Part shown: piece by piece, positions 1 through 31,606 of the stretch
Layout: every line of letters begins with the position of its first letter
Position numbering within the stretch: position 1 is the stretch's first letter
DNA from: Clavaria fumosa
Taxonomy: Eukaryota; Basidiomycota; Agaricomycetes; Agaricales; Clavariaceae
Direction: 5' to 3'
DNA length: 64,000 nt
NCBI GenBank assembly: GCA_951802425.1
Contig: OX637794.1
Span: 4,650,001-4,714,000 of the forward strand
Translations under genes and position numbers: made by a program
The notes under the pieces: generated by a model
The model's database searches: none
What the model was told of the DNA's origin: nothing
The model's input: the letters and a program-made list of their open reading frames with translations, nothing else

Positions 1-246
1 GTTTCACACTGTCTGCAAACCGATCTATGTCCCATTCTGTTTGAACTGAATGGTCAAAGTGTTCAGCTGATTGTTGCAAGTCATTTAAGCTAACGCACTT
101 GGGTTGAAGAGGGCATATGCCACAGTTAGAACTACACATTGTAGTTCTTCTTGAGTCACAGGTTGGTCGTCAGCATTACTCTTGTTGCTGGAATCCATGG
201 CAACTCTCAATTCCTCAAGTTTGCCCCAAATTTTCAACCTTCCTTC
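1..246 (-). CDS. possible 3' part of an unknown gene, cut by window edge
   Basis: Read on the minus strand, this stretch keeps an open frame of ordinary-looking composition (acidic, with the start-like segment MDSSNKSNADDQPVTQEEL). A GTGCGT donor near position 106 and a CAG acceptor about 50 bases further on would join it to a second open segment reading towards the window edge. I do not recognise the product. There is no clear initiation context and the gene would continue beyond position 1. It could equally be a repeat relic like its neighbours. Confidence 0.25.
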
Positions 247-587
247 AGTTTTAGATGGCTTAACAGGATTAAAAATTGATGACTTGCCTTGTCTTGAGTG
301 GCTTTTGCATTTTATGAGTTATGTGCTTGCGTATCATAGTGCGTAAGAGGCTCCACATGGTGCCTTTCAAAGTACATGGCCTTGGGTGGGCATTAGACAT
401 CAACTCAGCTCAGTTAGACGATACATACGCATCACAAGGAGCATAATTGGTCCTCCTGTTTGAGCCAGATAAGTCAGTCTTTTGATGCTTCCTTTTGGCC
501 ATTGGATGAGCTGAATTCACAAATCTATGTTAGGGGGTTTGACAGTCAACAAGGTCACATGACTCCTTTTTTTTCTATTCTTCTTTT

Positions 588-738
588 GAATCAGCATTTA
601 TATACTGCAACATTGGCAAAGACAAAGACGCGGTTGTACATATGGTACATATTTATGAGATAAAGGATGAATTGGGGATGGAGGTATGTGGCATGGGTTT
701 GTAGGTTATATTGCCATCATTTAGTGTGGGTCAGGCGG
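588..738 (+). repeat. 150-bp dispersed direct repeat, copy 1
   Basis: About 150 bases are repeated at 1394-1544 with only scattered substitutions. Both copies start at GAATCAGCATTTATATACTG and end at GTGTGGGTCAGGCGG. Neither copy is coding. They probably mark a short non-autonomous element or a local duplication. Confidence 0.8.
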
Positions 739-1393
739 GTTTGTTGGGTATGATGCAGTATCGAAGAGGTTAAGGCCGGGTAGTTCTGGTGGGATAGGGG
801 GTTTGAGCGGCTCTCCGGTTGAGGTGAATACTCCGGAGATTCGTAAGAATTTCGCAATGGCGAGTAGTCCTTTGGTACTGCTGAGCGGGATCGGCAGAGA
901 GTGGTTGCAATGCACTTCCGATAGTATGTGTCAGTGTTCGTCGTATGCTCAGCAATTATGGAATATATGGTCTATGTATCTCGTCACTGGAGTTGTTGGG
1001 ATCGTGTCTCCGCAGAGGCATTTGGGCTCATGAGGTATTTTCATATATTGTGATGCTATCTTATGACAGGCACACAGTACAGCATTGATGGCAGAGGATA
1101 GTCATTTAGAGAAGTTCAATCAGAGTAGCTGGTAACAAGGCAATGTGAGAGCCAGTGTCATCTAGGCCTTTATGTTGGCCCTGATATATGCCTCATTAAT
1201 TGATGAATGGGCCATTGAGCAATGTATTAGCCACAGTTATGTAGGCCTATATGTTCATTACTACAAATTTACAATTCGGCCAACATGCAGTCTTCGCAGG
1301 TAATACATTTTTCAGGCTGGGCCTACACATTTGCCCAATGATGTCTCTTGATCGGCCCTCACGTATGCCTCATTAATTGATGATTGGGCCATT
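739..1393. other. non-coding interval between direct repeats
   Basis: No convincing gene. A shorter motif (GCCTCATTAATTGATGA followed by GGGCCATTGA) occurs at about 1190 and again at about 1366. The small ORFs here lack splice structure and family motifs. Confidence 0.5.
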
Positions 1394-1544
1394 GAATCAG
1401 CATTTATATACTGCAACATTGGCAAAGACAAAGACATGGTTGTATGTATGGTACATATTTATGAGATAAAGGATGAATTGGGAACAGAGGTATGTGGCAT
1501 GGGTTTGTAGGTTATATTGCCATCATTTAGTGTGGGTCAGGCGG
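1394..1544 (+). repeat. 150-bp dispersed direct repeat, copy 2
   Basis: Second copy of the 588-738 repeat in the same orientation. It ends about 50 bases before the stop codon of the minus-strand gene at 1596-3172. Confidence 0.8.
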
Positions 1545-1595
1545 TTAGGTCAGATATCCATGTTCCTTCATACGTGAAGGAACAGATGCTTTACA

Positions 1596-3172
1596 CTACT
1601 GTTGATTTATAATTAGCCAGCGCCCTCCAAAAATTTTGCCTCCCAGCCATACTTTCTCCTCAGGTGTATTGAAGATAAGTTTGTTGGTGCACCGCAGATT
1701 TTGACAAGCAAATATTCTTGCCCCAGCATTACCAGTAGATGAGACCCAGGAGCAGATGCAGCCACACGCCTTGCACTGCACTGGGAGCTGATTTCCCCAA
1801 GGGCGAAGCTCAGGGTGAACCCACATATAACAAGCACCACGTATTTGTCCCTCTCTTGCCTGGAGATGGATGATGTCGGTGTGGCGACAAATTGCTGATG
1901 TCGCAGGTAGGAGCCTCTGGAGACAGTCCTCCAGAGGGAATCCCTCCACCAGAACTTGCTGGGCGTAGCCAACTACAAACCCTGCCATAAGGCAAGGTTG
2001 CAGCTCAGCGGCTGTGAATGTGATGACATCTGAAATCAAAAGGCTGGAAATTTGATTAATTAGCAAATTGAGAGTGCTAGTTATTGTCTTACCGCTTGGT
2101 TGCCTCTGCTAGCTCTGAATAACTATGGAAGTTCTTGACTAATGTTCCACAGGACATCATCCACAATGTGACCTCTGCCCCTTTGAGGAATGTCAAGTGG
2201 GCAGGTGGGAGGAGGATGTCGAGAAACTAAGGCTTCAAATTAGCTGGAGGCAGATGCATTGTAAACAAACTCATGGGTTTGACCTGGGTGCATAACCCAG
2301 GTGAAAGAAAGAGGTTGCCAGTGTCATCATGAGAATGATTTGTAATAAAAATTACAACACGGGGATGTTTATTTCTGTGAAAATGGTTAGTACAATATGA
2401 TATGAAACAGAAAGCTCATACTGAATCTTATGCACCAAGCTCTTCATGTACTCTGCATGCAAATTGATAAGGATGTCATTGGCAAGATCGAACACAACCT
2501 CTTCATACTGCAACGCCTCATCTCCAAGATACGACCACATATAGTTGGTGAGAAGTCTTGCCGGCATTCCAGCAGGATCCATTCCTTTGAGGAGAAAGTG
2601 CAAGACAAGTAGTCCCTTGTTGCTGACATGAGAATTTGCAGTCATTTGAAAATTGCCTACTACCTTGAGAGGTTGTGCAAACGCTGGTCGCAATCTTGCC
2701 GTGTCGGGCTTCCCGTCGATGATGTCGAGGCCCTTTGTCAAATAGAACCCCTACAATGCAAAGATAAGAGAATGAAACAGAATAAGTAAATCAATGCTCA
2801 CATAATATGGGCTGAGGGTGGGTCCTTTGAAAGACCGAGCATGGCAGGTGAGACACATGAACTTGAGGTGTTCGGTGTTGATCAAACTCGGGATGGTGAG
2901 GCATTTTGTGCATAGCGCCTGAGCACAGTAATCACAGACAAAAAGAAAACCACCATTAAGGCACATGTAGCAGAACTGTGGAAAAAGTTTATTGTTTTGT
3001 ACCAGTGCTCAGAGCAAAGGCGAATACTCACATTTTCACCCTCACTAGCAAATTGTGGTCTAACCAGCGCTGTAGAAGTAGCTATCGTTCTTGTGGATAC
3101 AGCTGACCCTGGGACAATGCGGAGAGCGTGACCGCCGGTACTTCTCTGTGCTGTTTGTTTGTTTCGAGCCAT
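1596..3172 (-). CDS. histone H3-tail mimic with PHD-like finger and possible His/Cys catalytic domain
   Basis: Exons join as 3172-3032, 2975-2802, 2750-2422, 2374-2284, 2226-2093 and 2043-1596 on the minus strand. All phases agree and give 438 residues. Introns are 47-57 nt with CAG or TAG acceptors; intron 3 has a TACTAAC branch site. Residues 2-16 match the histone H3 tail at 11 of 15 positions: K4, Q5, T6, S10, T11, G12 and G13 are kept, K9 is R and K14 is H. Residues 49-91 hold eight cysteines spaced C-x2-C-x8-C-x2-C-x4-C-x2-C-x15-C-x2-C, a PHD-like layout with Cys in the usual His position. A later strand-His motif (about residues 221-230) and strand-Ser-Cys-Gly (about 263-272) resemble a caspase/CHAT His-Cys pair, which is tentative. 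A CxxC...C-x4-C zinc ribbon lies near the C-terminus. A TAG at 2227-2229 interrupts the frame unless the 57-nt intron 2283-2227, with an unusual GTCAAA donor, is spliced. Function unknown. Confidence 0.72.
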
Positions 3173-3500
3173 TGCGAGGGGGATAAGCACTAAGAGAGAG
3201 TGAGGGTCATGCATATATAATGTTTTCCAGATCACCTTGACTACAACAATACAAGACTACATCTCTTGAATAGGGGAGGTTCAGTCGACAGTGGTACCAC
3301 ACAACGATTAGACAGAGGGGAGAACAAGGTGTGAAGCAATAAGTTCAGACAAGAAGGAAGTTTCCATAACTACCAGGGTAGGCAAGTACAATGATTGGAC
3401 AAAGGAGGAACAAGACATGTTCAGACCAGGAAGGACTACTGTATGTGTAGTTACAAAGGCACAAAAAGAATATATCCAAGGCTGGGACAAAGCATCTAAG
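3173..3500. other. upstream region of the H3-mimic gene
   Basis: No gene recognised. This would contain the promoter of the minus-strand gene starting at 3172. A TATATAA-like stretch (minus-strand reading) lies at about 3213-3220, roughly 45 bases upstream of the start codon. Confidence 0.4.
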
Positions 3501-3845
3501 ATAGCGTGATGAGTGTTGAGAAGGGCTAATGCTCAAACGTTCTCTCGTTTACTTGTGTCTATAATAGTTCTCATTCACTTGTTTATAGTTGTCCCTTTGT
3601 GTCTACCTGCTCTCCTCTCCTTGTATTTACCTACTGGTGCCGTCATGCCCTCTTGGCATTCGTGCTATGGCCCTGTAGTGGATACTTGCAGAGACAAGAC
3701 CTTGTGCATGCCTGCCACCTGCCGCCTGCTCTTCTGCCACTACTTGCCGCCTGCTCCCTGCCATGCTGTCCCGCCCTGCCCTGCTGCCACTGCTGCTCCC
3801 TTTCCCCACCCTGACGCTCTGCTTCTGCCCTGTCCCTGCTGCCAC

Positions 3846-3920
3846 CAATGGCCCCAGTCCCCGCCATTGGTCTGTGACCACTGTTGGGGGCTTGGGCCAT
3901 TGCTGCCGCATGCTGCAGCC
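3846..3920 (-). repeat. GC-rich palindromic module, copy 1 (inverted)
   Basis: Core runs from GGCCCCAGTCCC through GACCACTGTTGGGGGC to a GGGCCAT end. It is the reverse complement of the modules at about 5020 and 5390. The outer ends AATGGCCC and GGGGCCATT pair, so each copy can fold imperfectly. Confidence 0.75.
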
Positions 3921-4040
3921 GCAGCCGCCACCACTGTCATTGCCGCCACATACAAATGGCATAAACTGATGAAAAACACTCCCTTCACAGGATGTGTGAT
4001 GACAGCAGAGGGTGCATGGCTTCGAAGCCACTAGCCCTGC

Positions 4041-4058
4041 TTAGGGTTAGGGTTAGGG
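4041..4058 (+). repeat. short interstitial telomere-type repeat
   Basis: Three perfect TTAGGG units in a row. TTAGGG is the usual telomere unit of many fungi. Three units are too few for a telomere, so this is an interstitial remnant or chance. Confidence 0.7.
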
Positions 4059-4380
4059 CTGCAAAACTGCATAAGTTACAGTATGATTTCTTTATATCAT
4101 CTTCATTTCAAAAAAAGCATCAAGTACAAATAATTTACAAGTCTAGTGTAAAACGTATCAAAAAGAAAACCATGTCAGGCATTTACATCAGAGGATGGGT
4201 GGCCAAATCCACCTCTGACTAGCCATTCACATCGCAATATATGCTTCATTGCAAAGAGGGCACTGCAATCTAAGCAGTGCCCCACTTCGCTGAAGCAAGA
4301 GTTCCCCCCAGTCTCGAGTAGATAAAAAAAATGGACTTACTGATTGTTGTCCATAAGAGAGGGAATCTGTAAGAAACTGG

Positions 4381-4605
4381 GGTGGGAGGACACTAACCAC
4401 ATGGCAGCTAGCAGTCCATCCCGGAGCCCATATGGCAACCCCAAGGTATGAGTGGGGTGAGAGGACGCTAACCACATGGCAGCTAGCAGTCCATCCTGGA
4501 GCCCATATGGCAACCCCAAGGTATGAGTGGGGTGAGAGGACGCTAACCACATGGCGGCTAGCAGTCCATCTCGGAGCCCATACGGCAACCCCAGGGTATG
4601 AGCGC
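4381..4605. repeat. 75-bp tandem repeat, three copies
   Basis: Units start at about 4381, 4456 and 4531, each with GAGGACxCTAACCACATGG and GGAGCCCATATGGCAACC. The spacing is exactly 75 bases, a multiple of three, which is why ORFs run through it in both directions. Copies differ at a few positions. Confidence 0.85.
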
Positions 4606-5007
4606 AAGCAAAGCCTGCACCCTGCCCACACCGCTTAGCACACCCTGCACTCCATCCACAACACCTGGCGCACCCCGCGATCCATCCACACTGCCTGGGC
4701 CCTGCATATGCCATCTGGTGCACCCTGTACTCTGCCTACACCAACCCCGCCTTACTGCCCACTCCCCACCTCATGTCAGCAATGGTGCGTTGTTATCCCA
4801 TCCCCCTTCTCCCCTTGCTACTCTTTCAGCCTCACGGCAACCACGGCGGCAGCATCAACGACAACGACAACGATGGTTGCATGGCCAGCAACGACGGCGG
4901 TGATGACAGTGGTGGCAGCGGCGGCTGCATGGCCAGTGACAACGACGACGGCGGCAGCAGCAGCGGCCAGCGATGACGACAGCGGTGGCGGCAGCGGCAC
5001 AGCAGCA

Positions 5008-5080
5008 TGCGGCAGAAATGGCCCAAGCCCCCAACAGTGGTCATAGACCAATGTCAGGGACTGGGGCCATTGCGGCAGCG
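5008..5080 (+). repeat. GC-rich palindromic module, copy 2
   Basis: Contains GGCCCAAGCCCCCAACAG, then TGGTCATAGACCA and GGGACTGGGGCCATT. It is inverted relative to copy 1 and is flanked by GCAGC/GGC triplet runs. Confidence 0.75.
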
Positions 5081-5378
5081 GCAGCAGCAGCAACAATGAT
5101 GGCTACGTGGCCAGCGACGACAACGACGATGACAGCAGCGGCCATCAATAGTGACGATCGTGACGGCTGCATGGCCAGCAATGACACGACGGTGGCAGCG
5201 GCGCAGCAGCAGCAGTGGTGGTGGCGGCGGCAGCTGCAGCGGCCATCAATAACGACAATGAAGACGGCTGCACGGCCAGCAAAGACGACGACGATGGCGG
5301 TGGTGGCGGCAGCAGCAGCAGCATTGGCACGGCCAGCAAGGACGACGAGGACGGTGGCGGCAGCGGTGGTGCGGCAGC

Positions 5379-5445
5379 ATGCAGTGATAATGGCCCAAGC
5401 CCCCAACAGTGGTCATAGACCAATGGCAGGGACTGGGGCCATTGG
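5379..5445 (+). repeat. GC-rich palindromic module, copy 3
   Basis: Near-identical to copy 2 in the same orientation, about 370 bases downstream, and again preceded by GCGGCAGCATGC. Confidence 0.75.
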
Positions 5446-5551
5446 GCAAGGAGCGGCTGGGCGGAGAGTGGCAGTAGGAGCAGCAGGGCAGGGAATGGCA
5501 GCAGGGTGTGGAATGTGGAACCGGGGTGGCAGCAGGGCGGGGAATGGGTGG

Positions 5552-5675
5552 GCGACAAGCAGGTCACAGAATTGGTTGGCGACAAGCAGGTCACAGAATT
5601 GGTTGGCGACAAGCAGGTCACAGAATTGGTTGGCAACAAGCAGGTCACAGAATTGGTTGGCGACAAGCAGGTCAG
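5552..5675. repeat. 27-bp minisatellite, about 4.6 copies
   Basis: Unit GCGACAAGCAGGTCACAG plus AATTGGTTG, at 5552, 5579, 5606, 5633 and a partial copy at 5660. One copy has GCAACAAG instead of GCGACAAG (a CpG transition). Confidence 0.9.
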
Positions 5676-6000
5676 GATGGGAAGCGGGTCAGGGATCAGG
5701 GACGGTAGCAAGGCATGGAGGAACAGAGGTGGCAGCAGGGAGGAGGGAGCAGGGGCAGCAGCACGGCAGTGATGCATGACAGATCGAGGGTGGCAGCAGG
5801 GCGGGGAGCGCGACCGGGCAGGGAGTGTGGCAGATGAGGAGCATGGCAGGGCAGGGAGCAGGCCGTTCCCTGCCCCATCAGACACATGATGAAGCAGACC
5901 AATCAGGGGTGGCAGCAGGGCAGGGAGTGATGAGAAGGGGGTGATGTAATGCAACAGGGGATGGCAGTGGTCAGGAGGTGGAGGAAGTCGCCAAGGACAG

Positions 6001-6314
6001 GAAGGTGTCATCCAGTGGGGACGCCTAGTGCTGATATCACTGAAAATTGTACTACAAATGACATTATTTTTCTTGTGTTACCTTTCCTTTCATTTCGGAG
6101 CCTTCTGTGCTCATACACTTCCATGTCATTAGAGGGAGACCACCCAGATTGTGCTACATTCAGATTTCAAGCAGAAGCACAAGAGCAGAGGCCCGTGACA
6201 GTGTAACAGGTGTGACATGTAACAGTGGGGATCCCGGGCACTGCCACCATCAATTTCATCCTTCTTAGTACTTGAATCCTTGTTACTTGAACTCACTCCC
6301 AAACCACACTTTCA
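6001..6314. other. region upstream of the JmjC relic
   Basis: No gene recognised. At about 6195-6245 it holds a GTGTGACATGTAAC / GGATCCCGGGCAC segment similar to the repeat at 10.8 and 13.6 kb. Confidence 0.4.
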
Positions 6315-9300
6315 ATGTCTACTTCGATGAACAAATCCTCTTCCTTGACAAGCAAAATGTCGACTTCAGCATTGCTCACCATCTTCGATCCCCAAACAGT
6401 CTGCACAAGTGCTGTTTTCCAAAACTATCCTTGGTTGACCAACATCATCATGAAGCCTGGACTTCTGGAAAGCAACATTGCTACTTGGCTGGGACAGCAC
6501 CACAACTTAGGAGAGGAGCAAGTTTCCCTCTGCAAGGTTCAATTCAAACTTATAAACTTAGGATTATTTGCTTATCAAAGCTAATTGTCTAGTCGATCGC
6601 TCAGTCTTTGGATCATTTTGGACCTGGAAGCACGGCACTGAAGAAGGAAAGAGCAGTCAATGAATACTTCCAGGCATCATACAGTGACTTGGTTAGCAGA
6701 GAGAAATGGGAGAAACACAACACATCGGCTCTCATGAGCACTGCTCATTTCGTTTTTCGTCATGCCCTTTTGGACCACTTGGCATTTTCGATTGTTGAGG
6801 CTCCTCCATCCCAGCTAACGCCTCGATCTGAATTGCCTAAGATGCCCAAGAAGTTTAGCGATGTGCATTAAATTTCTTTCCCTTATTCCAAGTTTCTTAT
6901 CTTTCATAGTATATTGGTACCATTAAGGATTGGCTCAAGCCCATTGAAAAGGCACAGGGGTCTCAAAGCTTTCAAGCCATGGATCCATTGACAAATTCTG
7001 CAGCATATTTTGGCACCTCCCTTCCTGCACACCCTTCGCCAAAGCAGGAACAACTGATCAAAGCTGTAAAGTTCCTTGGTGGGGGCCTGGAACGAATGCG
7101 AGACATCCAGGTCAAGTCCGTACTTCTAAACTTTGAGATGATGGCATTTGCCATCACTTGGTTTGGCTTGGTTTGTGTCCAGCAATTTTTTTGTTGGGAA
7201 TTATAACTAACATTCTCTCAGAATAATGCCACAGGTTTTGCTGAGTCGACCCAGGACTGGGTCAATATTTTAAATGAGTGAGAGCAACATAGTTTGCCTT
7301 ATCCAAATTTCCAACTAAGTTTTTTCACACAGACAATTAGAAAGCGAGGGTCTTCCTCTGTCTTCCAGCCTTGTCTCAAGGCTCACAGATCCACGTCTTG
7401 GCCCGATGCTCTTTGAGCATGTGCGCAGACTCTTCCACTACTGCCTGTCTGTCAGTCCCCTTTTTGCCCTGACAACAAGGGCATTTGACCAGTCGCAACT
7501 GCGACGAAGTTTCTTGGTATCAGTGAGTGCCTCATTTTTATGTCAGATTGTGTTTACGAAACAGGCAATATAGACTGCAATGTACTTGGGTAATGAAAAG
7601 CCTGCATTTTTGAGATTGATGGAGAAAGCACTGTGGAGAGCCCTGATGCAAACAAGCATCACCGGCGACTCATCAGCGGCCCTGAATGGCTTCCTTATGG
7701 AGTTTCAAGACCTTCAGGTGCAGTTCAAGGGGCCAGAAATTCAGATGGATTGGTATTCTCCATCCCGTATGTTATTTTGATATTTTCATCCCTGAATGAA
7801 ACTGACTGCAAAGAAAGGGCAAGTCCAACGTGTCATCACAGCTCCCGAACCATGTTCCATCGAAGAAGAAGCAGAGCCCATCATTGCTCCTGAAGCTGGT
7901 CCCCCGGAGCATGTTGAAGACATCATTCCTGCTCTGGAAGCAGATCCCCAGGGCATCACTTCTGCTCATGAAGCAGGTCTGATTGAGCAAACACCAATTT
8001 TCCCCATGCTCGAATATGGCCAGCAGGAGCTCTCAGACACTCAAGATGCTGAAGAAGCTGAAGGTGCATTGGAGAAGCCACTGAAACATGAGGTTCATCG
8101 TCCAGCACGAAGGGCAGCAAAGAGACTCTGGCATGAATCAGACCAGGAGAATAAGGATGACGAGTTGATCCCTGATGAGGAAGCTGTGACGAGGAAAGGG
8201 AAAGGAAAGGCGACACAGGATACACATGTGGGCCAAGGCAAGACAAAGCCACCTGGACCCATCCACCAGGGTAGAAAGGCTGCCTTGAAGCCAATTCGGA
8301 GTATCATTGACCTGACGGTCAAGGTATGACTTATATTGACACCCCAACAAATGCTGATTGAATTGTTTTATTTAGCATGTAGAGAAAGTGGAGGAGCTCT
8401 CCTCTTTACCCCTCCCCAAGGTAAGCAAAATCTCAACTACTGCGTATTATTTTAATTCACACAATGCAGATGGAGAATCACTCCATCAAAGTCAAAATGT
8501 ATGATGCAAATCCTGATACCGAGCCAACCGTCTATGAGCATTTCACAACTTCAGATTCAGTATGTTTAACACTTTTTTTCATGGATATCTCTCAAAATAA
8601 AGCAGGCATTCCACGAGTATCCTGTCCTAATGGACATAATAGAAATGGTTGAAGAGGAATATGTCAATCAGGTCCCTAAGCATTGTCTTCCAACTGCCAG
8701 GTCGCGAACATTCCATCCAGATGCGTCTGCAATATTCATCACAACCTGGACTGAGTTCATGAAGATGACTAGTCTGGAAATTCAAGAGGTGTTCCGTTGT
8801 CGACATATTCTTATTACGAATACGCCAATTTCAACCCTTGACTTTGATGAGGAGGGATTATCGATGTTGGCTCCTCTACATCAGGAATGTGTGTTCCAAG
8901 GTGAGTCTAAAATATTTCTCAAGTTGATTCATCTAAGTCAGCTTCTATAGTTGCAGAGATGTGAAAGCACTCTGATGCAAATCTGCTCCGCACTGGGACA
9001 CTCCACGATTTGCTGGAGTCAACATGTGATGTTACAAAACAACAGATTTTAAATGGCCTTGACTTCCTGATGGGAAGCCTCAGCCTCCCTCCACCACCTT
9101 GATTCAGGCATGTCCCATTTGTTGCTCTGACACATGACAACTGAAACAATAACTAAATCAGTGCTTTTGCAACTCATGAGTGGGCACGCCACCAAACCCA
9201 AAAGATGGATGGCTTCGCAAACCAACCTGACAAAGATGACCTGATCTGGGGCATTGCAGCCACTGGTGGGACCATCAGCATGCCCCATATTGATGATGTT

Positions 9301-10572
9301 GGCCTTGCATTGGTTCGACTGTCATGTCAGGGTCAAAGTGGTGGGTGGTGATGCGCCGCCGTACAGACGCAGAAGACTACGACTATTGTGGCAATATCTT
9401 TTCGATGCATGCCTTCCCCCTCAGTTGGGGTGATTGTAGCACCGGAAAAGAATTTTTATGTGCAGAGGCTATACACCTGAAGACAGGAGATATTTTGTGA
9501 GTTGCAATAATTATCACGTGCAATATTTACTGACAATCCTACAGTTTCATGTGTCCTGGCACACTCCATTTTGTGCTTGGCCCAGAGCCAACAATTGTTT
9601 ATGGCCAGCACTTTTATTCCACATCCATGATAGCTCGCAGCTGTGCTTCAGCCCTGCATATGTTTGTGCTCAACCCGATAATCACCAATCAAGAGCACCA
9701 ATCGACAACCACATACTTGTGCAAGATGATGGCAGTCTGGGTTGAGCACTACGTCATGTGGAAATCCAAATATGGTAGAATCTCTCCATCATTATGTATG
9801 TCATCTGATAATTGTTTTAGCATTTGGTGAGGCACTTGCCCACATCCCTGATGTCACAACAAGACATGGACTCCTGGATTTTATCATGGTGGGGAACATG
9901 CTTGAATTTGCGATAGCCCTTGGCCTCAAGTCACATGGGAGGAAACCACCACCTGAAATACTTGAAGAGCAAAACATTGCGATGTGGCGATACCACATCT
10001 TCCAGAGCTGGTTCATCGAATGATACATTCTTGAGATTGGTAGTCAAGGGGTGAACCCATCATATCTCTTCTACAAATTGCTCATCCAGTTTGGCACGGC
10101 ACTTTGTTCTTACATGAAAAGGTGGGAGAAAAAGGCACCACTCACAATCACTGCACAGCAGGTGATTGCAGCAGTGCTTGAGCACCTTCGGAAAGACTGG
10201 CAAGACCTTCTGGATGCCATCCAGAAGTTGCTCCATGACGATACCAGTGCTGGTAATTGGTTCTCCTGGGATGGCCCTGTCTTCCACATATTTCCCTGCG
10301 ACAATACTCAGGTTTGGATGGAGCTGGAAGATTTGCTGGACGATCCAATTTATGAACAGGTCTCTGAAGAAGAGCAAGAGGACAGTGATGCAGGAGATGA
10401 CCATTCTGAGTTGGGGACAATACATTCTAAGAGGCCCCTCTCCCCGCATGATGGTATGTGTTTCATTATATACTTTCATCTAGATGCAGCAGATTTTCTA
10501 ATCAATACAACAGATAATTCAGACATGGAATCGATGGTCTGTGTGAGACAGAGGTGCAGTTTCAATGCCTGA
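6315..10572 (+). pseudogene. decayed JmjC-type Fe(II)/2-oxoglutarate dioxygenase gene
   Basis: Fourteen exons join with 46-56-nt introns: 6315-6536, 6593-6862, 6910-7170, 7222-7277, 7334-7523, 7574-7766, 7818-8323, 8376-8420, 8470-8559, 8606-8900, 8951-9107, 9162-9496, 9545-9774 and 9821-10572. Phases agree except at the damaged points. Exon 12 gives a WG-AATGG block with the iron-binding His-x-Asp (9286-9294), then KWWVV. Exon 13 gives FMCPGTLHFV with the distal His at 9567, then GQHFYSTS, the arrangement seen in fungal JmjC proteins. Damage: in-frame TGA at 8962, 9100 and 10021, a one-base shift between His-x-Asp and KWWVV (about 9300-9325), and a GC donor at 9108. The middle is an acidic, Lys-rich linker. 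The fold supports histone or other 2OG oxygenase ancestry; the substrate is unknown. This copy is almost certainly dead. Confidence 0.7.
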
Positions 10573-10798
10573 CCCTAGCCATTGATTTTGATTAGACATA
10601 GAATAGAGCACATGTACTAGGAAGCACCGACTCAGTCATCGGAACCCTTGCTTGATGTATATATGCATTTACTTTTTTTGAAAGAAACTAACAGTTCGTA
10701 ATGGCTGTGAGATGTGACTGCTGTGGAATTTTGTACATTAAAAAAATACACAAGGCTCACATATTCAAAGGACATTTTGCATATTGTTATGGAGAGTT

Positions 10799-10843
10799 AC
10801 GGTCACAGTGTGACTGTCACACCCGAGTCCCGGGCACAGCCTC
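10799..10843 (+). repeat. dispersed short repeat, copy A
   Basis: GGTCACAGTGTGACTGTCAC followed by ACCC and CCGGGCACAGCC. It contains a GTGAC/GTCAC fold. The rest of 10573-10902 shows no gene. A near copy lies at 13612-13653, so the two flank the relic gene between them. Confidence 0.75.
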
Positions 10844-10902
10844 AGCAAGTCACAGTCACAACGCGTGACAAGTGACTCACATGAGCCAAGTTATTTTCTC
10901 AC

Positions 10903-13054
10903 GTGACACACCACTTCTTGCTTCCCAACAATGCCACTGCTTTATCAGTTAGGCTAGCAAAGAAAATGACACAGTGGATGACCCCAGAGTATACCAAAAT
11001 ACTCACAGAAAGTCTTGTAGCCTACAGACAGGCAAACTCAAAAGACTGCCTTGAAATTGTCAAGCAAATCAAAGCAAAAATCAAGGATTCAGCTGAGCAG
11101 GACAACAAATGTGTCCCAGAGGATCTTAGCACTGTAACCTATGCATTTTATGTGTCTCCTGAGTTGATTTGATGTTTGTCTGTTTGTAGAAAATTCGCAA
11201 TTGGCTCCACAATAACTGCAGGGCTGTCAGTGGAGGGGAGGAGTCTTCTGGTTCAGAAGATGATGGCAACCAAGGCCTTCAGTTCAGCAAACGACAGAGG
11301 TGGACCCTCCAGCGTGTTGTGGAGCAGTGCAAGAAGGGGATCATCAATGCCAGGGCCCAGGAGTTGTCAAATGCTGAGAGGGGATCAGTCCAGTTTCTCA
11401 GCTCATATCGTCATGCTAGGACTGAGATTTGTCAAGAGCTAACACAAGAGGAGCATCAGAAATACATGGGGTTGGTGGAGAAATGGAATAGGGAGCCTGT
11501 CCCAGTTCCTGTGCAGAGAGAGTGAGTATTTTAATTTACCTTTCTCAACCAGTAGAATGGCTGAAATGTTGCTTGGAGATTGGCTTCTTGCAAATTTATG
11601 CATGAGGCCCTGAAGTTTGCCCGTTTTGCAAAGGAGCAGATGGGTGTTGAATTATTTATGTTTACTGGCTGGCAAGATGAGAAAGGGAATATAAAGAAGG
11701 CAAAGTGAGTCTCAATTGCATGCCCACTGGTCCATCAGATTAATTCTCTGTATACATGCTCCAGGATTCAGACCCCTGGACCTGTGACTAGTGGGTTCAA
11801 GGTACAATTTCACAAAGTTGGTTGTGAGGTGTGGGAGGAGTGGGATAAATATTTGGCTGAGACATGGAATGGTGAGAAAATGATGTGAAGCCAAGGTTGG
11901 GGAAGTACTGACAGGATTTCAGATGAGTTACAAAGGAAGCCTTTTGTTGATGAAGAGGAGATGCTATCAAGGAAAGGAAGAGATATTAGTGTGCCATGGG
12001 ATTTGCTAACAGATCATGAGGGATGGCCCATTCTTCCTTTGGAACTCAACCTACCACTTGCACAACTCAAAGAAATTTTGTGGTCATTTTTTACTATCAC
12101 TTATCATGAGTCTGTCTTGCTCAATAGTCCAAGTCTGACAAGTTACTTCCAACATGTAGGCAATACAACAAAAAACAAGAAGGTTGCTGTCCCTTGGCAA
12201 CTGATAGCTGATGCTCCACACAAGTTTATTCCTCATGAATACCTTCTGAGGGAATGCAAATTTGTGAGCCTTCAAAAATGCAATATGTTGATGTCAGAAG
12301 GCTCTGTGATTTCCTGCATCACCGACAGACTTTGGGCCAGAAAATATTACAGTTTCAATATGTTCTCCCACAGCACCAGAGAGGGAAGCCATCAAGGCAT
12401 CTAGTCAACTATCACCAGCAACCTGAACAAGAGCCATCATTGTCATCTGACAAAGAGGTGAAGAGGCTCTCCCTCAAGAAGGGGAAAGAACGAGAGGTCC
12501 AGCCTGTCCATATCAGTACTGAGTGAGTGTTCTCATATCATCATTATCATCATCATCATCATCATCAATGCACATTTGAAATGCACATAGTGAGGACATT
12601 GGCTCAGATGAGTCAGACAGTGATTCGGGGTGCATCTATGATGGGGATAATGATGATAGGGTTGAGGCTTCTGTTCCCCCTGATAGTGATGCAGAAGAAT
12701 CCTGTCTGAGCAAGCAGGTGGATATGTGAAGGGGTGATGGTATTGAGGGGAATGGGTTAGAAGGTGACCATGACAGGCAACATCCAGGTGAGAATTTTCC
12801 AGTCCAGCATAAATACAATACAGATAATGGAATTTTGGACAGGAGAACAAGGGATGTGGGATGATGTGGGTGTGCATAGAGATGTTCATGGCCTTGTTGC
12901 TCATATGGCAGTTCAGATCCACAAGGAGGCAGGGCCCAGCCTGCCCAAGAGGAAAAGGGTATACCATGATGAAGAGGAGGAGGAGAGGTCTAAGCAATAT
13001 AGGACCAGGGCTAGAGAGAGGGCTTCCATGGATGCCAAGAAGCGGGTACTGTGA
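10903..13054 (+). pseudogene. decayed conserved gene of unknown function with acidic C-terminus and NLS
   Basis: Exons about 10903-11131, 11190-11521, 11579-11704, 11765-11871 and 11923 onward join in phase with 51-58-nt introns. The start codon is not clear; an in-frame ATG lies at 10966. The product would have a KIRNWLHNN segment near the start, a long helical middle, a highly acidic segment (12608-12715) and a basic PKRKR patch near the end. Damage: a frameshift at about 12255-12265 between the YLLRE and EPSKMQYVDV segments, a TGA at 12727 and a further frame change before 12840. A CAT microsatellite sits in the intron after 12522. I believe such proteins are repeated in mushroom genomes but cannot name a domain. 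Confidence 0.55.
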
Positions 13055-14306
13055 CCAAGGGTGAAGCACTGAAAATCATCCTTGACACTGGTGACAGTCA
13101 TTTGTAGTGCATATCAATCTGCATGATGTCTCACTAGGTCCTAATAATTCTTTGCAATCTGTCCTTTTGTGGTGCCTATAGTTTGGCCCTTTCTAAGGAA
13201 TTTCAGATAATGATCCACTTCCTGAATCAGTCAGCTTTGCATTAGATCATTGAAGAACCTGTGCCTATCAGAAAGCATATTTGAGTCTTGTTATTAGATG
13301 CATCATGTTGTTCAGAAGATTCATACCTTTATAAGCAATATCTGATAATAATATCCTCCTTCATTATTCCCACTGGATTGTTGAAGGTGGAGTGTGCCCC
13401 ATTGAACCACATATGTGGGTCCGTTTATAATGGTTTGTCTCTTTATAAGGAATATCAGATTATATACTGCCTTGCATCACTTCCTCAATTTAATTCTAGA
13501 CCACAATGGATCATTTTTATGTACAAAGGCTCATCCTGAACAATTCTAATACATTCTCCTCTTCTTTAGAACACATATTCAAAGTGGATTTGAATACTCT
13601 TATGCAGAGTTGGTCACAGTGTGACTGTCACACCCGGGATCCTGGGCACAGCCACAGAATGATATAATCACAAGGTGTGATAACAGACTCACATGCACAA
13701 CTTCTACATTGCAAGAATATTTGAACAATAACAATACATTCTCCTTTAGAACATGTATTCAAAGTGGATTTGAATACTCTTCAGAAAGGATATTAAGGCC
13801 CATCCTTTTCCAAAGAATATCCTGACTCAGTTGACAACCACATTTCACTCTAGTTTATAATGGCTCCATTGCATATTTGATTGGTACATTTGCTTCTACC
13901 CTTTGAAGACCTATTGGAAGGCATATTTGTTTTCATCTCACCCAACTATGTTAAGTTGTCATGGAGGAGTCTCAGATGATAAGGAGTCTCAAATGATGCA
14001 GATGACCTTGTAATTTACATGTCTATCAAATAGCACATCTGATCTTTGCTTCCTAATCTTGTGCATATGCTTTATCCCCAGCTTTTTGATCTAATTTGTC
14101 ATGTAAGTGAGAGAAATGTTTGAATAGGGTGCTTCAGACCCTCTACACTGGTTCCTAAAATGGGTGTCGGCCAGCCCTTTTGAAAGGGTATCATCATTAC
14201 CATGGGATCCCTGTATGCCTGGCAGGATTTTGGTATATCAAGTTGATTGGCCAAGCCTATAAAGCTATATCTCGGCTGACGATCAGCTTGGCCCATAAAA
14301 AGGGCA
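13055..14306. other. AT-rich interval without a recognisable gene
   Basis: Contains short repeated segments. ATTCAAAGTGGATTTGAATA with flanking bases occurs at about 13578 and 13758, and the GGTCACAGTGTGAC repeat recurs at 13612. The region around 14160-14290 has palindromic GGCCAAGCC / CTTGGCC segments. Small ORFs are not supported. Confidence 0.5.
13612..13653 (+). repeat. dispersed short repeat, copy B
   Basis: Same opening GGTCACAGTGTGACTGTCAC as at 10799, then CCGGGATCCTGGGCACAGCC. Orientation is the same as copy A. Confidence 0.75.
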
Positions 14307-16140
14307 TCAGTCAAAATTGGCTAGGCCTTTTGGATAGGGGGTGGGTGTGCTGAAGGGGGTGCATTCATCCGTATCTTCTTTCTTCCCACTCGTCGTCGCA
14401 GTGCTCGCTCCACTTTGTTTGCTCTTAGCCCAGGGAGGGCGTTGGCCCTCCTTGGGTCCTCCTTTCGCAAAGCAGTCCTCGATGTTGTGATTGGTGCGTT
14501 TGCAGTTCTCGCAGAGCTTCGATTGGCCTGACGACTTGTTCCCCTTGCCTCTTCGACGATTTCTGTTGGTCTGGAAGGCTGCCTGACCAGATTTCGATAG
14601 TCCGTGAGTTATTTCTCATTGGTGATTTTCCTCAAGCACAATTCTGATCAGGTAATTTGGGTCTACAGGTTTTTCGTTCATGTCTGCGGCATGGAGGACG
14701 GATTGCAAGAGCAGGTGATAGCTTAGCGGTAGGCTGACATGTATCATCGTCGCGAAGTCTTCGTTGTTGACTAGCGCTCCGATTCCTGCTAGTTCGTCTC
14801 GCAGGTTTGTCATCATGTTAAGGTGCGCGCTGTAAGGATAACATACGGCTCCAGCACAGAAACATGACAGATACCTACCATCCGATGAACTCAGCACACA
14901 CCCGCCTTGTATCCGACGCGAACCGATGACCATCCAACACCATCCGATGCCCTCCAATGACCGTCCATGAAGCCCGATACTGATCCGATAACTATCCGAA
15001 ATCGGACCCTCGTTAAATCAAATTCCTCGCTGCTGCCACATTACACAGGTGATCCATAGCGCCCATATACTCCAATTTCATTACTTTACTGTGCTTAGTG
15101 CTCCTTGTGACTGATGTTTCATGTACTCTCCCTTGTTTCATCCTTAATGCTGTACATTTCATATCATGTGTTCGTCTGAATTTGTAAATGTTTCTACACT
15201 TAAAAGTGTTTCATCTACACTGATCCATGTATGTACTATACTCGATTATGCTTTCTCTTCTTTCCTACCAGTGATCCCGATGACCAATTAATTCAGACTC
15301 TTCATTTCTACGTACTATGCCGTTTGCTCTATGACCTATGACCTCCATATGATTTTACCTATGACCCTCCCTCATTCCCCATGACCTCCAGATCATCCGG
15401 TACAATCCGGAGCATTTGTAATTACAAAAATGTACTTAAGAACATATTGGACTCTACAATAAGCAGCTGGTTCTGATCGCCCACATCCCCTTCATATCTT
15501 CGACTAGTCTCTCGCTCAACATCGGATCCGATATCGGACTCACATCGGAGTCTATCGGACACCTTGGATATCATATACTCTCATCCTCCCAATTCATATA
15601 ACTCATCCTCCACATCCTCCGAGGTTGCACTCACTGTTCTAGGCGTCGAGTCAGACCCCCCCCTGAAGAACTTGACTGTAATCAAGCAGTTGCAGCCAAC
15701 ACACGTACTACCTACTACAGTGCATACGTCACCACCTTCTGGGCAGCGAAGCTCCTGCAATCGACCTTGTGGACCTTACTCTTCTTCGTAGCATCCATGA
15801 CTATCGCCTGCCACATGTCTGCAGCAGACGTATTCGGCCTGAGCATTGTAGAGAGTCGGGGGGACACCGTGGTAAGCATTATGTGATGTGCGGCATATTC
15901 CTTTTGCTCATACTCGTCCATTGCTCGCTCTAGGTCTTGGATTTCAGCGCGAGTGGCGAGTTTTCTGGGTTCTGAGACAGGTCAACCGTTCTCGATATTG
16001 AAAGGTAATGGTCTCCTCACAGTCCCTTCAACATGTCTGATCAAGCCTTTTGCTCCCATAGCAGTTTTTGCCTTCAACTTGTAGTTGGCCAATTCGAACC
16101 ATCATCACGAAGTTTTATTATCGCGAATGGGGAGCTTTGC
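14307..16140 (-). pseudogene. Copia-type gag (UBN2-like) relic, split by an LTR insertion
   Basis: Minus-strand reading begins with a DDGSNW-like block, continues through ATRAEIQDLERAMDEYEQ and AHHIMLTTVSPRLSTML (up to 15720), then resumes at 14826 with AHLNMMTNLRDELAG. It ends with a CCHC zinc knuckle (C-x2-C-x4-H-x4-C, about 14480-14520). This is the order of Ty1/Copia Gag proteins. Damage: in-frame TGA at 15984-15982 and 14618-14616, a frameshift at the N-terminal end, and the 889-bp LTR insertion. No pol follows, so only a gag fragment survives. Confidence 0.7.
14831..15719. mobile_element. solo-LTR-like insertion (889 bp) inside the Copia gag
   Basis: Begins TGTAAGG and ends CTACTACA, giving TG...CA ends. 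Flanks are GCGC on the left and GTGC on the right, a 4-base duplication with one transition. Removing the insert plus one flank rejoins the gag frame. Repeated ATCCGAT/ATCGGA motifs cluster near both ends (14880-15010 and 15520-15565). No internal ORF is credible. Confidence 0.6.
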
Positions 16141-24062: not shown

Positions 24063-26510
24063 TCAACCTGCCAATTTTGCTTTGTTGGGGTGTTGCTGGA
24101 AGAAGTCCTGAAGCAGCAGAGTTACATTCATGAGGTTCCAGCAAGGTTCCCAGGTGTTCTCCTCCACAGGGTATCCCAACCATTTCACCAAATGCTTCAC
24201 CCCATGTCCAACCTTTTTGACATCAAGAATGGCCTCAACATCATACTCCAAGTGGTCATCATCAATCATGGGAGGGGGGGTGGAGGTAGGTTCTGAGAAG
24301 GGAAAGAGGGAGCAACATATGGGGTGAGCAGCACCTCATTGAAGACCTGGTGTATTCACCACACTCAGGGGAGCTTGAGCCGGTAGGCTGCTGGTCCAAC
24401 CTTCTCTTCAATGATGAAGGGTCCTGCTTGCTTGTTGCTGAGCTTCTTGGAGGGTCAGTCCATCTTTAAGTTTTGGGTGTTCAGCCAGACTAAGTCCCCC
24501 TTCGAATATTCATGACTTGGCCACTTTCCCTTATCATAGCTGGCCTTCATCGCATCTGCTGCCTTCACCATCGCTTCCCTGGCTGCTCTTCGGGATTCCG
24601 TGAGCTTGGCCATCCACTCATCTGCCACAGGGTTCACCTCCAATGGTGGCTGGATTCCACCATTCCATGGGTGCTGGCCATACTCTAGGTAGAAGGGCAT
24701 GAATCCAGTAGCAGAGTGCTCATGGTTATTGAGTGCAAACTCTGCAGTAGACAGCCATTCTGCCCAGTTGTCCTGTAGATGGTCAACATAGGCCTGGAGA
24801 TACACTTCAACCTCCTGGTTGACCCATTCTGTTTGCCCATCCATCTGGGGGTGGAAAGCAGTACTTGGGTTTGCCTTAACCCCAATCATCCCATAGAACT
24901 CCCTCATAAACCTAGACACAAACTGGGTCCCTTGGTCACTCACAACTTTCTGCAGGACCCCATGGTCATGGAAGACCTGGTCTCAGAGGATATGAGTGGC
25001 ACCAAGTCTGGTGAGGTCAAGACCAATCGCCTCAATGAGGGTCTGTTTTGTGAATTTGTCCACAATGACAAGGATTGCATTGTGCCTGCATGAGAGGGGG
25101 AAAGGCCTGACAATGTCCCAAGAGATTACTGCCCAGGGCCCCTCAGGGACAGGGTGTGGGTGGAGCAGGGCAGCACACCTGGTCTGGTCAGGTTTCACCC
25201 ATTGGCACATCTCACACCCACCCACATACCAGTTGGAATCCTTCACCATCCCCACCCACCAGTAGGACCTCAACAGTGCTGCTCTCAGCTTTCATGGTCC
25301 AGGGTGCCTGGCAATGGGGAGGTCATGCTCAAAAGTGAGCACTGCCTCATGTGCCTCTGGGGGTACCCAGGTGACTTGGGCCTTCCAACAGAGTCCCATT
25401 TGATCCCTTGTCCACTTGTCATCAAGCTCCTCCAGCTTCTGTACATGCACTGTGCTGTTTTTCTGGAGCAGCATCTCCATTTCTGATGTGAATGACATGT
25501 GGGTCTCCACTTCTGGGAAGACTTGCACCATCACATCCTCCTCCACCATCTCTCCATAGTCTGGCCTCTGCAAGAGTGCATCTGCCTTCATGTTCGACTT
25601 TCCAGTGCAATACTTTGATGGTCTCCTCCACACCAATTAGGTAGGCCCACCACTCCCATAGTGCCTGGATTACTGCCAGGAACTCCTTGTTGTACACATC
25701 ATAATTCTTCTCAGCTGCAGTGAGGGCCTTGGAGATGTAATCTACAACTCTCCAGGTCCCATCTGCCTGCTGCTGTGAGAGCACTCCACCAGTTGCCAAG
25801 TTACTCACATCTGTCTCTACCTTCCATCACCCTTTGTCTTGTGGTAGGGCCAAGACTGGGGCCAATACAAGTGCCAGACAAAGATCCTGGAAGGCCAATT
25901 CCTCCTCCTCCTCCCATTTCCATGGAACCTTGCCAGTCAGCTGGAATAATGGTTTAGCTCAGGCTGAGAGGTTCAGGATGTGCCAGTGGAGGTAGTTTGG
26001 CATTCCATTAAACTTCTGCACCTCCTTGACATTCTGAGGCTGTGGCCAGTTCCGCACTGCCTCACCTTTCACTGGGTCATGTTCCAAATGGTTGTGGGAG
26101 ATCTTCATTCCCAGGAAGATGATTTCACTCTTCTCAAACTCGCATTTACTGAGCCTGAGGCACAACCCATTCTCTCCAAACTTCTGCAAGACCTGATCCA
26201 TCCAGTACCAGTGAGTGCTCAAGTCCTCTGCAAACACAATCACATCATCCACATAAGCCCGGACATGTCCTCCTGCAATCTCTTCCCTCAGCACATGGTT
26301 CATGAAGCACTGGAAGGTGGCTGGTGCATTCTCTAGTCCAAACCACATAACCACTGGTTCAAAGAGTCCACAAGGAGTGAGGAATGCACAACGGTGCTGG
26401 TGCTCAGGCCAGACCTTCATGGACAGGAAGCCCCATTTTGCATCGATTTTAGAGTAGATTTTTGCCCACTTGAGCACATCCACAGTGTCACAGATACGGG
26501 GAAGGGGGGG
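24063..26510 (-). pseudogene. Gypsy (chromovirus) pol relic, element 1
   Basis: Minus-strand order from high to low coordinates: reverse transcriptase with intact YVDD (25959-26510), RNase H (GGVLSQQQADGTW, 25422-25808), integrase zinc finger (C-x2-C near 25200) and core (DQGTQFVSRF, then HPQMDGQTEWVNQE, 24455-24943), and a C-terminal chromodomain (YDVEAILDVKK, HLVKWLGYPVEENTWEP, 24063-24269). The frame changes several times, so the polyprotein is broken. The gag, protease and RT N-terminus are missing: the element stops abruptly near 26510 against element 2. The chromodomain is a known targeting module of chromoviruses that reads methylated H3. Confidence 0.8.
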
Positions 26511-26511
26511 C

Positions 26512-31500: not shown

Positions 31501-31606
31501 AGTGAAAGTCTTTTATGACTTTGGTATGGACCCGAAGGAGGAATGGCTAGTAGACACCATTATTGGCCATAGGTGGGAAGGTCACCACCTAGAATGCAAG
31601 GTTTGA
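28557..31606 (+). pseudogene. Gypsy element 2 pol: RT, RNase H, integrase
   Basis: The RT runs from 28600 with its active site mutated to Y-L-D-N (29220-29231) in place of YxDD. RNase H follows (MCDASVSG at about 29667, then TWDWEALA). After TGA 30141-30143 the same frame continues into the integrase: an HHCC finger (H-x3-H...C-x2/3-C), MDFVGPFP, SDHDPRFTSAFW and PQTDGATERS with the D, D and E positions present. A frameshift near 31270 leads to the C-terminal segment, where a TGA at 31604-31606 interrupts a WxxGDTTWEPY chromodomain-like end. The element is dead. Confidence 0.8.

What the first reader, a model, noticed from the sequence alone, without database searches (positions are those of the whole stretch)
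1596..3172. Histone H3-tail mimic fused to a PHD-like finger
The conceptual protein opens with a 15-residue stretch identical to the H3 tail at 11 positions, followed within 50 residues by an eight-Cys PHD-like finger. PHD fingers are known readers of H3 N-termini, so the protein could bind its own tail, recruit H3-tail readers or writers, or decoy them. K4, S10 and T11 are kept while K9 and K14 are changed, which would retain K4-type marks but lose K9/K14 signalling. The downstream strand-His and strand-Ser-Cys-Gly segments suggest a caspase/CHAT-like hydrolase core. I believe related proteins exist in other mushrooms but cannot verify it. The combination is the best candidate here for an undescribed system.
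Basis: partly seen in the sequence, partly recalled or inferred. Interest (0 to 1): 0.9.

Follow-up and report, generated by a model that had tools for sequence, protein, structure and literature searches.

The report
Jumping gene carrying histone H3-tail mimic
A 26-kilobase DNA transposon, repeated many times in what is likely a mushroom genome, encodes a protein that begins with a conserved near-copy of the histone H3 tail followed by a PHD-type zinc finger closest in sequence to fingers that read that very tail; the built-in tail is predicted to dock on the protein's own finger and would control a predicted protease that likely helps the transposon escape chromatin silencing.

Summary
In detail: the gene at 3172-1596 (minus strand, 6 exons, 441 aa) starts with ARNKQTAQRSTGGHALR, 11 of the first 15 residues identical to H3, followed at Cys49 by a PHD-type finger. 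It is cargo of a DNA transposon (26,058 bp in a sister copy: 3.66-kb inverted repeats, CA..TG ends, 7-bp target duplication) that also carries a KDZ transposase and a TET/JBP dioxygenase, a Kyakuja-type element. 83 loci match H3-like tail exons, not counting two true H3 genes. In 15 such loci read, R2, Q5, G12 and R17 never change, while the linker is unalignable and synonymous sites are saturated: the tail is selected, not accidental. R8 and K14 are never kept, K9 in 3, and K4 is replaced in 5 of 15, so 'K4 marking retained' is not general. The finger is nearest to H3K4me0-reading PHD/ADD domains. Two sister paralogue lineages without the tail also lost the finger's acidic edge and the catalytic Cys; 13 of 18 such copies lie near a tail-bearing partner. 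Best reading: the tail is a built-in ligand or pseudosubstrate of its own reader-protease. Anatomy and selection are firm; protease fold and mechanism are untested.

The parts
3119..3172 (-). H3-tail-like start: Met plus 17 residues (ARNKQTAQRSTGGHALR)
3032..3172 (-). exon 1: tail plus about 30-residue variable linker
   Evidence: linker unalignable between lineages
2802..2975 (-). exon 2: eight-Cys PHD-type finger (CYMC..GG..CDYC..LC..C..CLTCH)
2422..2750 (-). exon 3: conserved region, no known family
2275..2374 (-). exon 4: strand-like stretch ending in the conserved His (FITNHSHDDTG), predicted catalytic
2093..2226 (-). exon 5: strand-like stretch ending in the conserved Cys-Gly (LWMMSCG), predicted catalytic
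1596..2043 (-). exon 6: C-terminal domain with a Cys-rich end, stop at 1596
1..14361 (.). part of the transposon inside the window (it continues outside to C1:4638393)
10702..14361 (.). terminal inverted repeat of the transposon, outer end ...GGGGGTG at 14361
88..198 (-). predicted 5' exon of the TET/JBP gene; its PF12851 match lies outside the window at C1:4649101-4649490
   Evidence: ORF; domain; exon assignment inferred
8570..9827 (+). JmjC-like open frames (PHIDD, CPGTLHFVLGP); tentative, below cut-off
   Evidence: the scored model was made from the sister copy L043

Best explanation
This is an accessory gene of a TET-carrying KDZ (Kyakuja-type) DNA transposon whose protein begins with a conserved near-copy of histone H3 residues 1-17, which is predicted to dock on the protein's own PHD-type finger as a built-in ligand or pseudosubstrate and so would restrain a predicted Cys-His protease until the finger meets a real H3 tail on chromatin. 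Shown: the transposon setting, the tail, its conservation, the PHD sequence match, the conserved His and Cys-Gly, and the loss of the Cys together with the tail in two sister paralogue lineages. Inferred: removal of Met so that Ala1 is free; tail-finger binding within or between molecules; protease activity; H3 or a silencing factor as substrate; benefit to the transposon alongside its TET/JBP enzyme. The constant R17 at the end of the H3 likeness, followed by I, V or A in all 15 loci read, would fit a contact with, or cleavage by, the catalytic centre. Loss of R8-K9 register and of K14 would deny the K9 and K14 marks.
For: Transposon: 26,058-bp sister copy with 3,662-bp inverted repeats, CA..TG ends, 7-bp duplication; KDZ PF18758 E=2.1e-30 and CxC2 5.2e-27; Tet_JBP PF12851 E=1.2e-18. 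Of the 37 tail loci, 27 have a TET match within 10 kb against 2.8% of 20,000 random points on ten contigs, and 24 a KDZ match against 5.9%, with 150 of 185 KDZ matches listed. Tail under selection: 71 of 97 fourfold sites differ at identical residues, mean tail identity 0.61 against linker 0.09 over seven lineages; N against A tail dN 0.117, linker 0.917; R2, Q5, G12, R17 in 15 of 15. Finger: profile hits CHD4 7e-9, ATRX ADD 5.7e-7, PHF21A 1.2e-6, AIRE 9e-5; CHD4, BHC80 (PHF21A) and AIRE are named as H3K4me0 readers in PMC3471955 (passages), ATRX ADD as an H3 reader is recalled. Coupling: His and Cys-Gly kept in 7 of 7 tail-bearing lineages aligned, Cys lost in 2 of 2 tail-less ones, which also lost the acidic edge and GG of the finger. 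In a hand-assigned set, 32 of 32 clade-2 finger exons have a tail exon within 700 bp; 0 of 18 clade-1 B/D copies do within 1 kb, but 13 of 18 have a tail-bearing partner within 15 kb. The one TET element read in full shows no clade-2 gene (weak hits only).
Against: No binding, expression or activity data. The catalytic region matches no PDB chain below E=0.9 and no Pfam family below E=0.15. Fold prediction of single pieces failed (mean pLDDT 56.9 and 42.3). The tail-less B and D are sisters (0.985), so the joint loss is one event, not two, and only three such loci were read at the N-terminus (L042, L076, L077). K4, central to K4me0 reading, is R, H or T in 5 of 15 loci, and residue 1 is Pro in 4 and Val in 1. 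The window finger has Asn where the second acidic residue is expected, and its fifth ligand is Cys, not His. Some tail-bearing copies have damaged fingers: G lacks one Cys, L096 has Tyr at the fifth ligand, E lacks a Cys and is broken. D keeps the His. A trans decoy would also conserve the tail.
Confidence: 0.4

Rival explanations
1. Trans decoy: the tail would be exposed and compete for host readers or writers of H3 N-termini (as DPPA3 competes with H3 for the UHRF1 PHD finger), lowering DNA-methylation or H3-based silencing of the transposon; the protein's own finger and catalytic part would do something else.
For: H3-like VRT residues of PAF15 and DPPA3 bind the UHRF1 PHD finger, and mouse DPPA3 competes with H3 (PMC11187062 passages). 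Loss of R8-K9 register and of K14 suits a decoy that avoids K9 marking. CpG observed/expected is 0.43 in the element and 1.03 in window 36-64 kb, so methylation-type decay is a real threat.
Against: The tail is lost together with the finger's groove residues and the Cys, which a free-standing decoy does not require, though this is one event. K4 varies, so readers that need K4 would be missed in 5 of 15 loci.
Confidence: 0.3
2. Releasable peptide: the protein would cut itself after the constant R17 and set free an H3(1-17)-like peptide.
For: H3 likeness ends at R17, R17 is in 15 of 15, and residue 18 is I, V or A in 15 of 15, unlike H3 K18. The tail goes with the Cys-Gly in the lineages aligned.
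Against: No protease fold shown; a 17-residue peptide may be short-lived.
Confidence: 0.1
3. The tail is a fossil of a captured H3 exon or a chance likeness, without function.
For: The host H3 gene L002 has its first intron right after STGG, so a short H3 exon exists to be captured.
Against: Likeness runs past that intron to R17; synonymous sites are saturated while residues stay; tail dN between N and A is lower than in any other part of the gene compared; chance is negligible.
Confidence: 0.03
4. The protein is a non-enzymatic chromatin adaptor; the conserved His and Cys-Gly are structural or metal ligands, and the tail works through the finger alone, for example by chaining molecules together.
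For: No fold evidence for a hydrolase.
Against: His and Cys-Gly follow hydrophobic strand-like stretches in the order known from caspase-like enzymes (recalled), are kept in 7 of 7 tail-bearing lineages aligned, and in the metagenome homologues that cover those parts: His in P0005, P0007, P0008, P0009, Cys-Gly in P0004, P0009.
Confidence: 0.17

Closest known systems
TET+ Kyakuja (KDZ) DNA transposons of Agaricomycotina (Kojima 2025, PMC12730594; abstract, sections 3.2 and 4.2 and term finds read)
   Same: KDZ transposase with CxC2, TET/JBP gene, CA..TG ends, 7-bp target duplication
   Different: Here 3.66-kb inverted repeats (the paper says no TIRs for the two Laccaria families) and an H3-tail-PHD gene; 'PHD', 'protease', 'caspase', 'accessory' do not occur in that paper's main text
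H3K4me0-reading PHD/ADD fingers (CHD4, PHF21A/BHC80, AIRE, ATRX ADD, TIF1 group)
   Same: Finger sequence; GGxL strand, CD motif, acidic residue(s) before the first Cys
   Different: Fifth ligand Cys instead of the PHD His; carries its own H3-like ligand about 30 residues upstream
PAF15 and DPPA3, H3-like ligands of the UHRF1 PHD finger (PMC11187062, passages read)
   Same: Non-histone H3-like residues offered to a PHD finger
   Different: The shared motif there is three residues (VRT/ART) on host proteins; here 1-17, on a transposon protein with its own finger
PDB 2l43, an engineered H3.3-linker-BRD1 (BRPF2) PHD fusion (listing; passage)
   Same: H3 tail, linker, PHD finger in one chain
   Different: Made for structure work (inferred from its title); here the same layout occurs naturally and repeatedly
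SNAG domains of SNAIL/GFI1 that bind LSD1 (recalled; only a search listing seen; not compared by a call)
   Same: N-terminal H3-tail mimic; the MPR- start of L078 recalls it
   Different: From recall: no PHD finger or hydrolase in the same protein
Anti-silencing protein of plant Vandal transposons (one passage in PMC12730594; the name VANC is recalled)
   Same: Transposon-encoded protein against its own epigenetic silencing (function here inferred)
   Different: Sequence-specific regulation, not H3 mimicry; no sequence comparison made
Caspase/CHAT/separase-type Cys proteases (recalled)
   Same: Order strand-His ... strand-Cys-Gly
   Different: No family, profile or structure match found

Membership tests
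Kyakuja (KDZ) TET+ transposon | KDZ transposase domain and Cys cluster | tested here: met
   PF18758 2.1e-30, PF18803 5.2e-27 in the sister copy; KDZ match at C1:4647019-4647393 in the window copy, with 1 stop inside
Kyakuja (KDZ) TET+ transposon | TET/JBP dioxygenase gene | tested here: met
   PF12851 1.2e-18; window copy at C1:4649101-4649490
Kyakuja (KDZ) TET+ transposon | CA..TG ends and 7-bp target duplication | tested here: met
   Sister copy at C1:3619802: TGGTTGC on both sides. Window copy: ends met, no direct duplication, flanks inverted over 64 bp
Kyakuja (KDZ) TET+ transposon | no terminal inverted repeats (as in the two Laccaria families) | tested here: not met
   3,662-bp inverted repeats, 99.86% identical; so called Kyakuja-type, not a member of those families. 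No transposase tree was made
PHD finger | profile similarity to solved PHD fingers | tested here: met
   CHD4 7e-9, PHF21A 1.2e-6, AIRE 9e-5
PHD finger | Cys4-His-Cys3 ligands | tested here: not met
   Fifth ligand position is Cys in the ten rows, as in the ATRX ADD match, and Tyr in L096; Pfam PHD matches 6 of 10 rows, best E 0.0012, the window type below the cut-off. So 'PHD-type', not canonical PHD
H3K4me0 reader | acidic residues before the first Cys, GG strand, CD motif | tested here: inconclusive
   Window type GEN-F with GG and CD: one acidic residue, Asn at the second. Others: GEQ-Y, NDE-W, HDN-W; NDK in two; SG in G; CN in L079 and L096; absent in B, and in D except CD
H3K4me0 reader | binds unmodified H3 N-terminus | not testable with these tools
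   needs protein
Histone H3 mimic | H3-like sequence at the N-terminus kept by selection | tested here: met
   Met removal before Ala or Pro is expected from general knowledge, not tested
Histone H3 mimic | engages an H3-binding protein | not testable with these tools
   needs binding assay
Caspase/CHAT-like protease | His and Cys at strand ends, in that order | tested here: met
   columns conserved in 7 of 7 tail-bearing lineages aligned; the strands are judged from sequence only
Caspase/CHAT-like protease | caspase-hemoglobinase fold or family profile match | tested here: inconclusive
   no match in PDB or Pfam; low-confidence models

The most novel reading that the evidence does not exclude
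Mushroom DNA transposons have evolved a self-reading histone mimic: an H3(1-17) tail copy, an H3-reading finger and a Cys protease in one protein, which together with the transposon's TET/JBP enzyme strips both histone-based and DNA-based silencing from the element, using the H3 copy as a built-in latch that the real H3 tail releases. In the three element types looked at (N; B with C; D with B'), one tail-bearing, catalytically complete copy was seen per element.
Probability: 0.32. Interest if true: 0.93.

Novelty: new variant of a known kind. Interest (0 to 1): 0.85.

Why it matters
Histone mimicry is known from viruses, bacterial effectors and host regulators (recalled); I found no report of a transposable element that encodes an H3-tail copy in the listings of the searches (only the top papers of each are listed; the founding KDZ paper, Iyer et al. 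2014, is not held). It would add a histone arm to elements already known to carry a DNA-demethylation-type enzyme, and gives a directly testable anti-silencing system. The natural layout tail-linker-PHD is one that structural biologists built by hand (2l43). The diverged tails are a natural mutational scan of which H3 residues matter for one reader.

Tried and rejected
Chance likeness and fossil exon were rejected. A plain single-copy host gene was rejected: 18 other copies cut as loci match at 93-98% DNA identity. 'K4 marking retained' was rejected as a general rule after reading eight more loci. 'R8-K9 swapped in most lineages', my first wording, was rejected on recount: the exact K8-R9 pair is in 6 of 15. 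A single-sequence protein search found no homologue; an alignment search found nine fragments, and a tail-exon search three proteins, one of them weak at E=0.048. Fold prediction of window pieces was uninformative, so no fold search was run. A genome search with 12 kb of window DNA returned no scored matches because there were too many letters. The spliced JmjC-like model stays below Pfam's cut-off and reaches only E=0.04 against KDM2A, so it is kept as tentative. My automatic splicing failed for G, L078, L079, L008 and D; for those only exons were compared. Automatic splicing of C skipped a short exon that one search suggests is conserved (..NDE before WC). One of the eight extra loci (L090) showed no tail when read; the 83 matched loci come from searches at E up to 10 and include weak and broken ones. 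Of the 12 exact H3-start matches, L005 is a chance match and C10:2242540 was not read.

Full report
Observation. The minus-strand gene at 3172-1596 is as described: an ATG followed by ARNKQTAQRSTGGHALR, 11 of the first 15 identical to H3, then an eight-Cys finger. Splicing at sites shared with sister copies gives six exons and 441 aa. In the window copy the intron-4 donor is not canonical, whereas many sister copies have a canonical one there; the copy's KDZ match also has a stop inside. The window copy is therefore probably decayed, while the sister copy of this gene in L039 is open.

It is part of a transposon. A search of the host genome with the protein gave 167 exon matches. Of the loci cut from it, 18 other copies match the window DNA at 93-98%, and the match runs past the gene on both sides. 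Two 10-kb stretches around other copies match each other over all they share. Adjacent stretches of one copy (C1:3618000-3645999) show an element of 26,058 bp bounded by 3,662-bp inverted repeats (99.86% identical), with ends CACCCC..GGGGTG and the 7-bp duplication TGGTTGC. It encodes, besides this gene, a TET/JBP dioxygenase (PF12851, 1.2e-18) and a convergent KDZ transposase with CxC2 cluster (PF18758 2.1e-30, PF18803 5.2e-27). The window holds 14,361 bp of its own copy; the other end is at C1:4638393, with the TET and KDZ matches outside the window at C1:4649101 and C1:4647019. Kojima 2025 describes TET+ Kyakuja elements with CA..TG ends and 7-bp duplications in Agaricomycotina, but no inverted repeats in the two Laccaria families (PMC12730594, section 3.2). 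Hence 'Kyakuja-type'.

The tail is a recurring module. A 22-residue tail peptide found 39 places, two of which are the true H3 genes read as L002 and L007 (more H3 genes may exist, and C10:2242540 was not read). Two further tail peptides bring the union to 83 loci outside those two, at E up to 10. Tails read: N (window), A (L026), E (L067, broken), B' (L006, L008), C (L042), G (L075), L078, L079, L085-L089, L091, L092; L090 showed none. Over these 15 (some are close kin, such as L078/L079 and L087/L088), R2, Q5, G12 and R17 are constant; A1 10 of 15 (Pro 4, Val 1); K4 10 of 15 (R 3, H 1, T 1); R8 0, K9 3, K14 0, P16 0 of 15. K is commonest at 8 (10 of 15) and R at 9 (11 of 15); both together, a swap of the H3 order, occur in 6 of 15. 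After R17 the likeness falls off: residue 18 is I, V or A in all 15, and 0 to 4 of residues 18-30 match H3 in any row. Among seven lineages mean tail identity is 0.61 against 0.09 in the next 22 residues (0.17 at the best shift); 150 of 217 codon pairs with the same residue use different codons, and 71 of 97 fourfold sites differ, which is saturation. Between N and A, dN is 0.117 in the tail, 0.25 in the finger, 0.917 in the linker. The tail is the most constrained part compared.

The finger. As a profile of ten sequences it finds CHD4 (7e-9), ATRX ADD (5.7e-7), PHF21A/BHC80 (1.2e-6) and AIRE (9e-5) first in the PDB. BHC80, AIRE-PHD1, CHD4, TRIM24 and BRPF2 are the H3K4me0-reading group named in PMC3471955 (passages). 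A single clade-2 finger finds ATRX ADD at 2.3e-5. Five clade-2 stretches read share a short open frame ending in NDE (NDK in two) before the finger's WC; that it is an exon is inferred from this conservation. The fifth zinc-ligand position is Cys in the ten rows, as in the ADD match, so it is not a canonical C4HC3 PHD. Some tail-bearing copies have damaged fingers (G and E lack a Cys; L096 has Tyr at the fifth ligand). With the whole N protein as query, later PDB matches are histone H3 and Cse4 over residues 1-40 (E 0.5-2.6).

Two clades and a coupled loss. Clade 1 (N, A, E, B, D) and clade 2 (C, B', G, L078, L079) share the layout (support 1.0 for clade 2; E was not in the tree). All seven tail-bearing lineages in the alignment keep the His and Cys-Gly. 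The two tail-less ones, B and D, lost the Cys (B also the His), the acidic edge, the aromatic residue before Cys1 and the GG strand of the finger. B and D are sisters (0.985), so this is one event. For most of the 18, absence of a tail rests on the peptide searches; N-termini were read for L042, L076 and L077. The one N element read in full shows no clade-2 gene, only weak hits. So in the three element types looked at (N; B with C; D with B') one tail-bearing, complete copy was seen; the latter two were not read from end to end.

Association. 27 of the 37 tail loci lie within 10 kb of a TET match (2.8% of 20,000 random points on ten contigs) and 24 of 37 within 10 kb of a KDZ match (5.9%; 150 of 185 KDZ matches were listed). 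Copies of one element are not independent. The L078 group (12 loci) has KDZ within 10 kb in 9 but TET within 15 kb in none.

Beyond this genome. An alignment search of about 5.8 billion proteins gave nine homologous fragments at E up to 0.01, with only the 7,995 best candidates scored; a single-sequence search had given none at 0.001. P0009 keeps His and Cys-Gly, P0004 keeps Cys-Gly, P0005, P0007 and P0008 keep the His; P0001, P0002, P0003 and P0006 do not cover those parts. A tail-exon search gave three proteins out of 85 candidates: P0010 and P0011 are kin of C and N; P0012 (E 0.048) starts MARTKQTAKRSTGAPAPR and continues into unrelated sequence. The organisms are unnamed, so independence from the host species is not shown.

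Mechanism. The constant or common residues at the start (R2, Q5, most A1 and K4) are what a K4me0-type finger would grip (general knowledge of PHD-H3 complexes); the finger has that type of sequence; tail, finger edge and Cys are lost together. I therefore prefer a built-in ligand or pseudosubstrate over a free decoy, at about 0.4 against 0.3. The decoy has good precedent in DPPA3 and UHRF1 (PMC11187062 passages). The hydrolase call rests on two short motifs and may be wrong. CpG observed/expected is 0.43 in the sister element and 0.37 in the window part, against 1.03 in window 36-64 kb: the element suffers the decay that methylation would cause, which makes an anti-silencing role plausible but does not show it.

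On recount the K8-R9 swap is in 6 of 15 (not most), the K4me0-reader motif test was downgraded to inconclusive for the window finger, damaged fingers in G, E and L096 were added, and confidence was lowered slightly for that reason (0.42 to 0.40; novel case 0.33 to 0.32; adaptor rival 0.15 to 0.17).

Limits.

Noticed in passing
window 14362-14425 and C1:4638329-4638392 (L080): The window copy is flanked by a 64-bp inverted repeat (98.4%) instead of a direct 7-bp duplication.
   Followed up: partly
window 8570-9827 (+); L043 5597-7587 (-): The same transposon seems to carry a JmjC-like dioxygenase gene (Pfam JmjC E=0.015, below cut-off; KDM2A E=0.04), possibly a histone-demethylase-type partner of TET/JBP.
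   Followed up: partly
window 1-14361: Strong CpG depletion (0.37) against 1.03 in window 36-64 kb; some copies have stops inside the tail that look like CpG decay.
   Followed up: partly
window 4041-4058: An interstitial telomere-like run, three TTAGGG units, upstream of the gene inside the transposon.
   Followed up: no
window 4378-4602 and 4614: Three 75-bp tandem units inside the transposon; beside them the sister copy has about 780 bp that the window copy lacks.
   Followed up: no
window 24458-34063: Open frames that look like Ty3/gypsy retrotransposon integrase and polyprotein, by eye only.
   Followed up: no
L042 (C10:2462500-2472499): Two genes of the family about 6.7 kb apart: a tail-less, Cys-less copy and a tail-bearing complete copy, with simple repeats between.
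   Followed up: yes
P0012 (metagenome protein, 100 aa): Starts MARTKQTAKRSTGAPAPR, 13 of 17 as in H3, then unrelated sequence without a Pfam family.
   Followed up: partly
L074 (C2:4086600-4088700): A decayed type-A tail gene lies directly beside KDZ transposase-like frames, by eye only.
   Followed up: no
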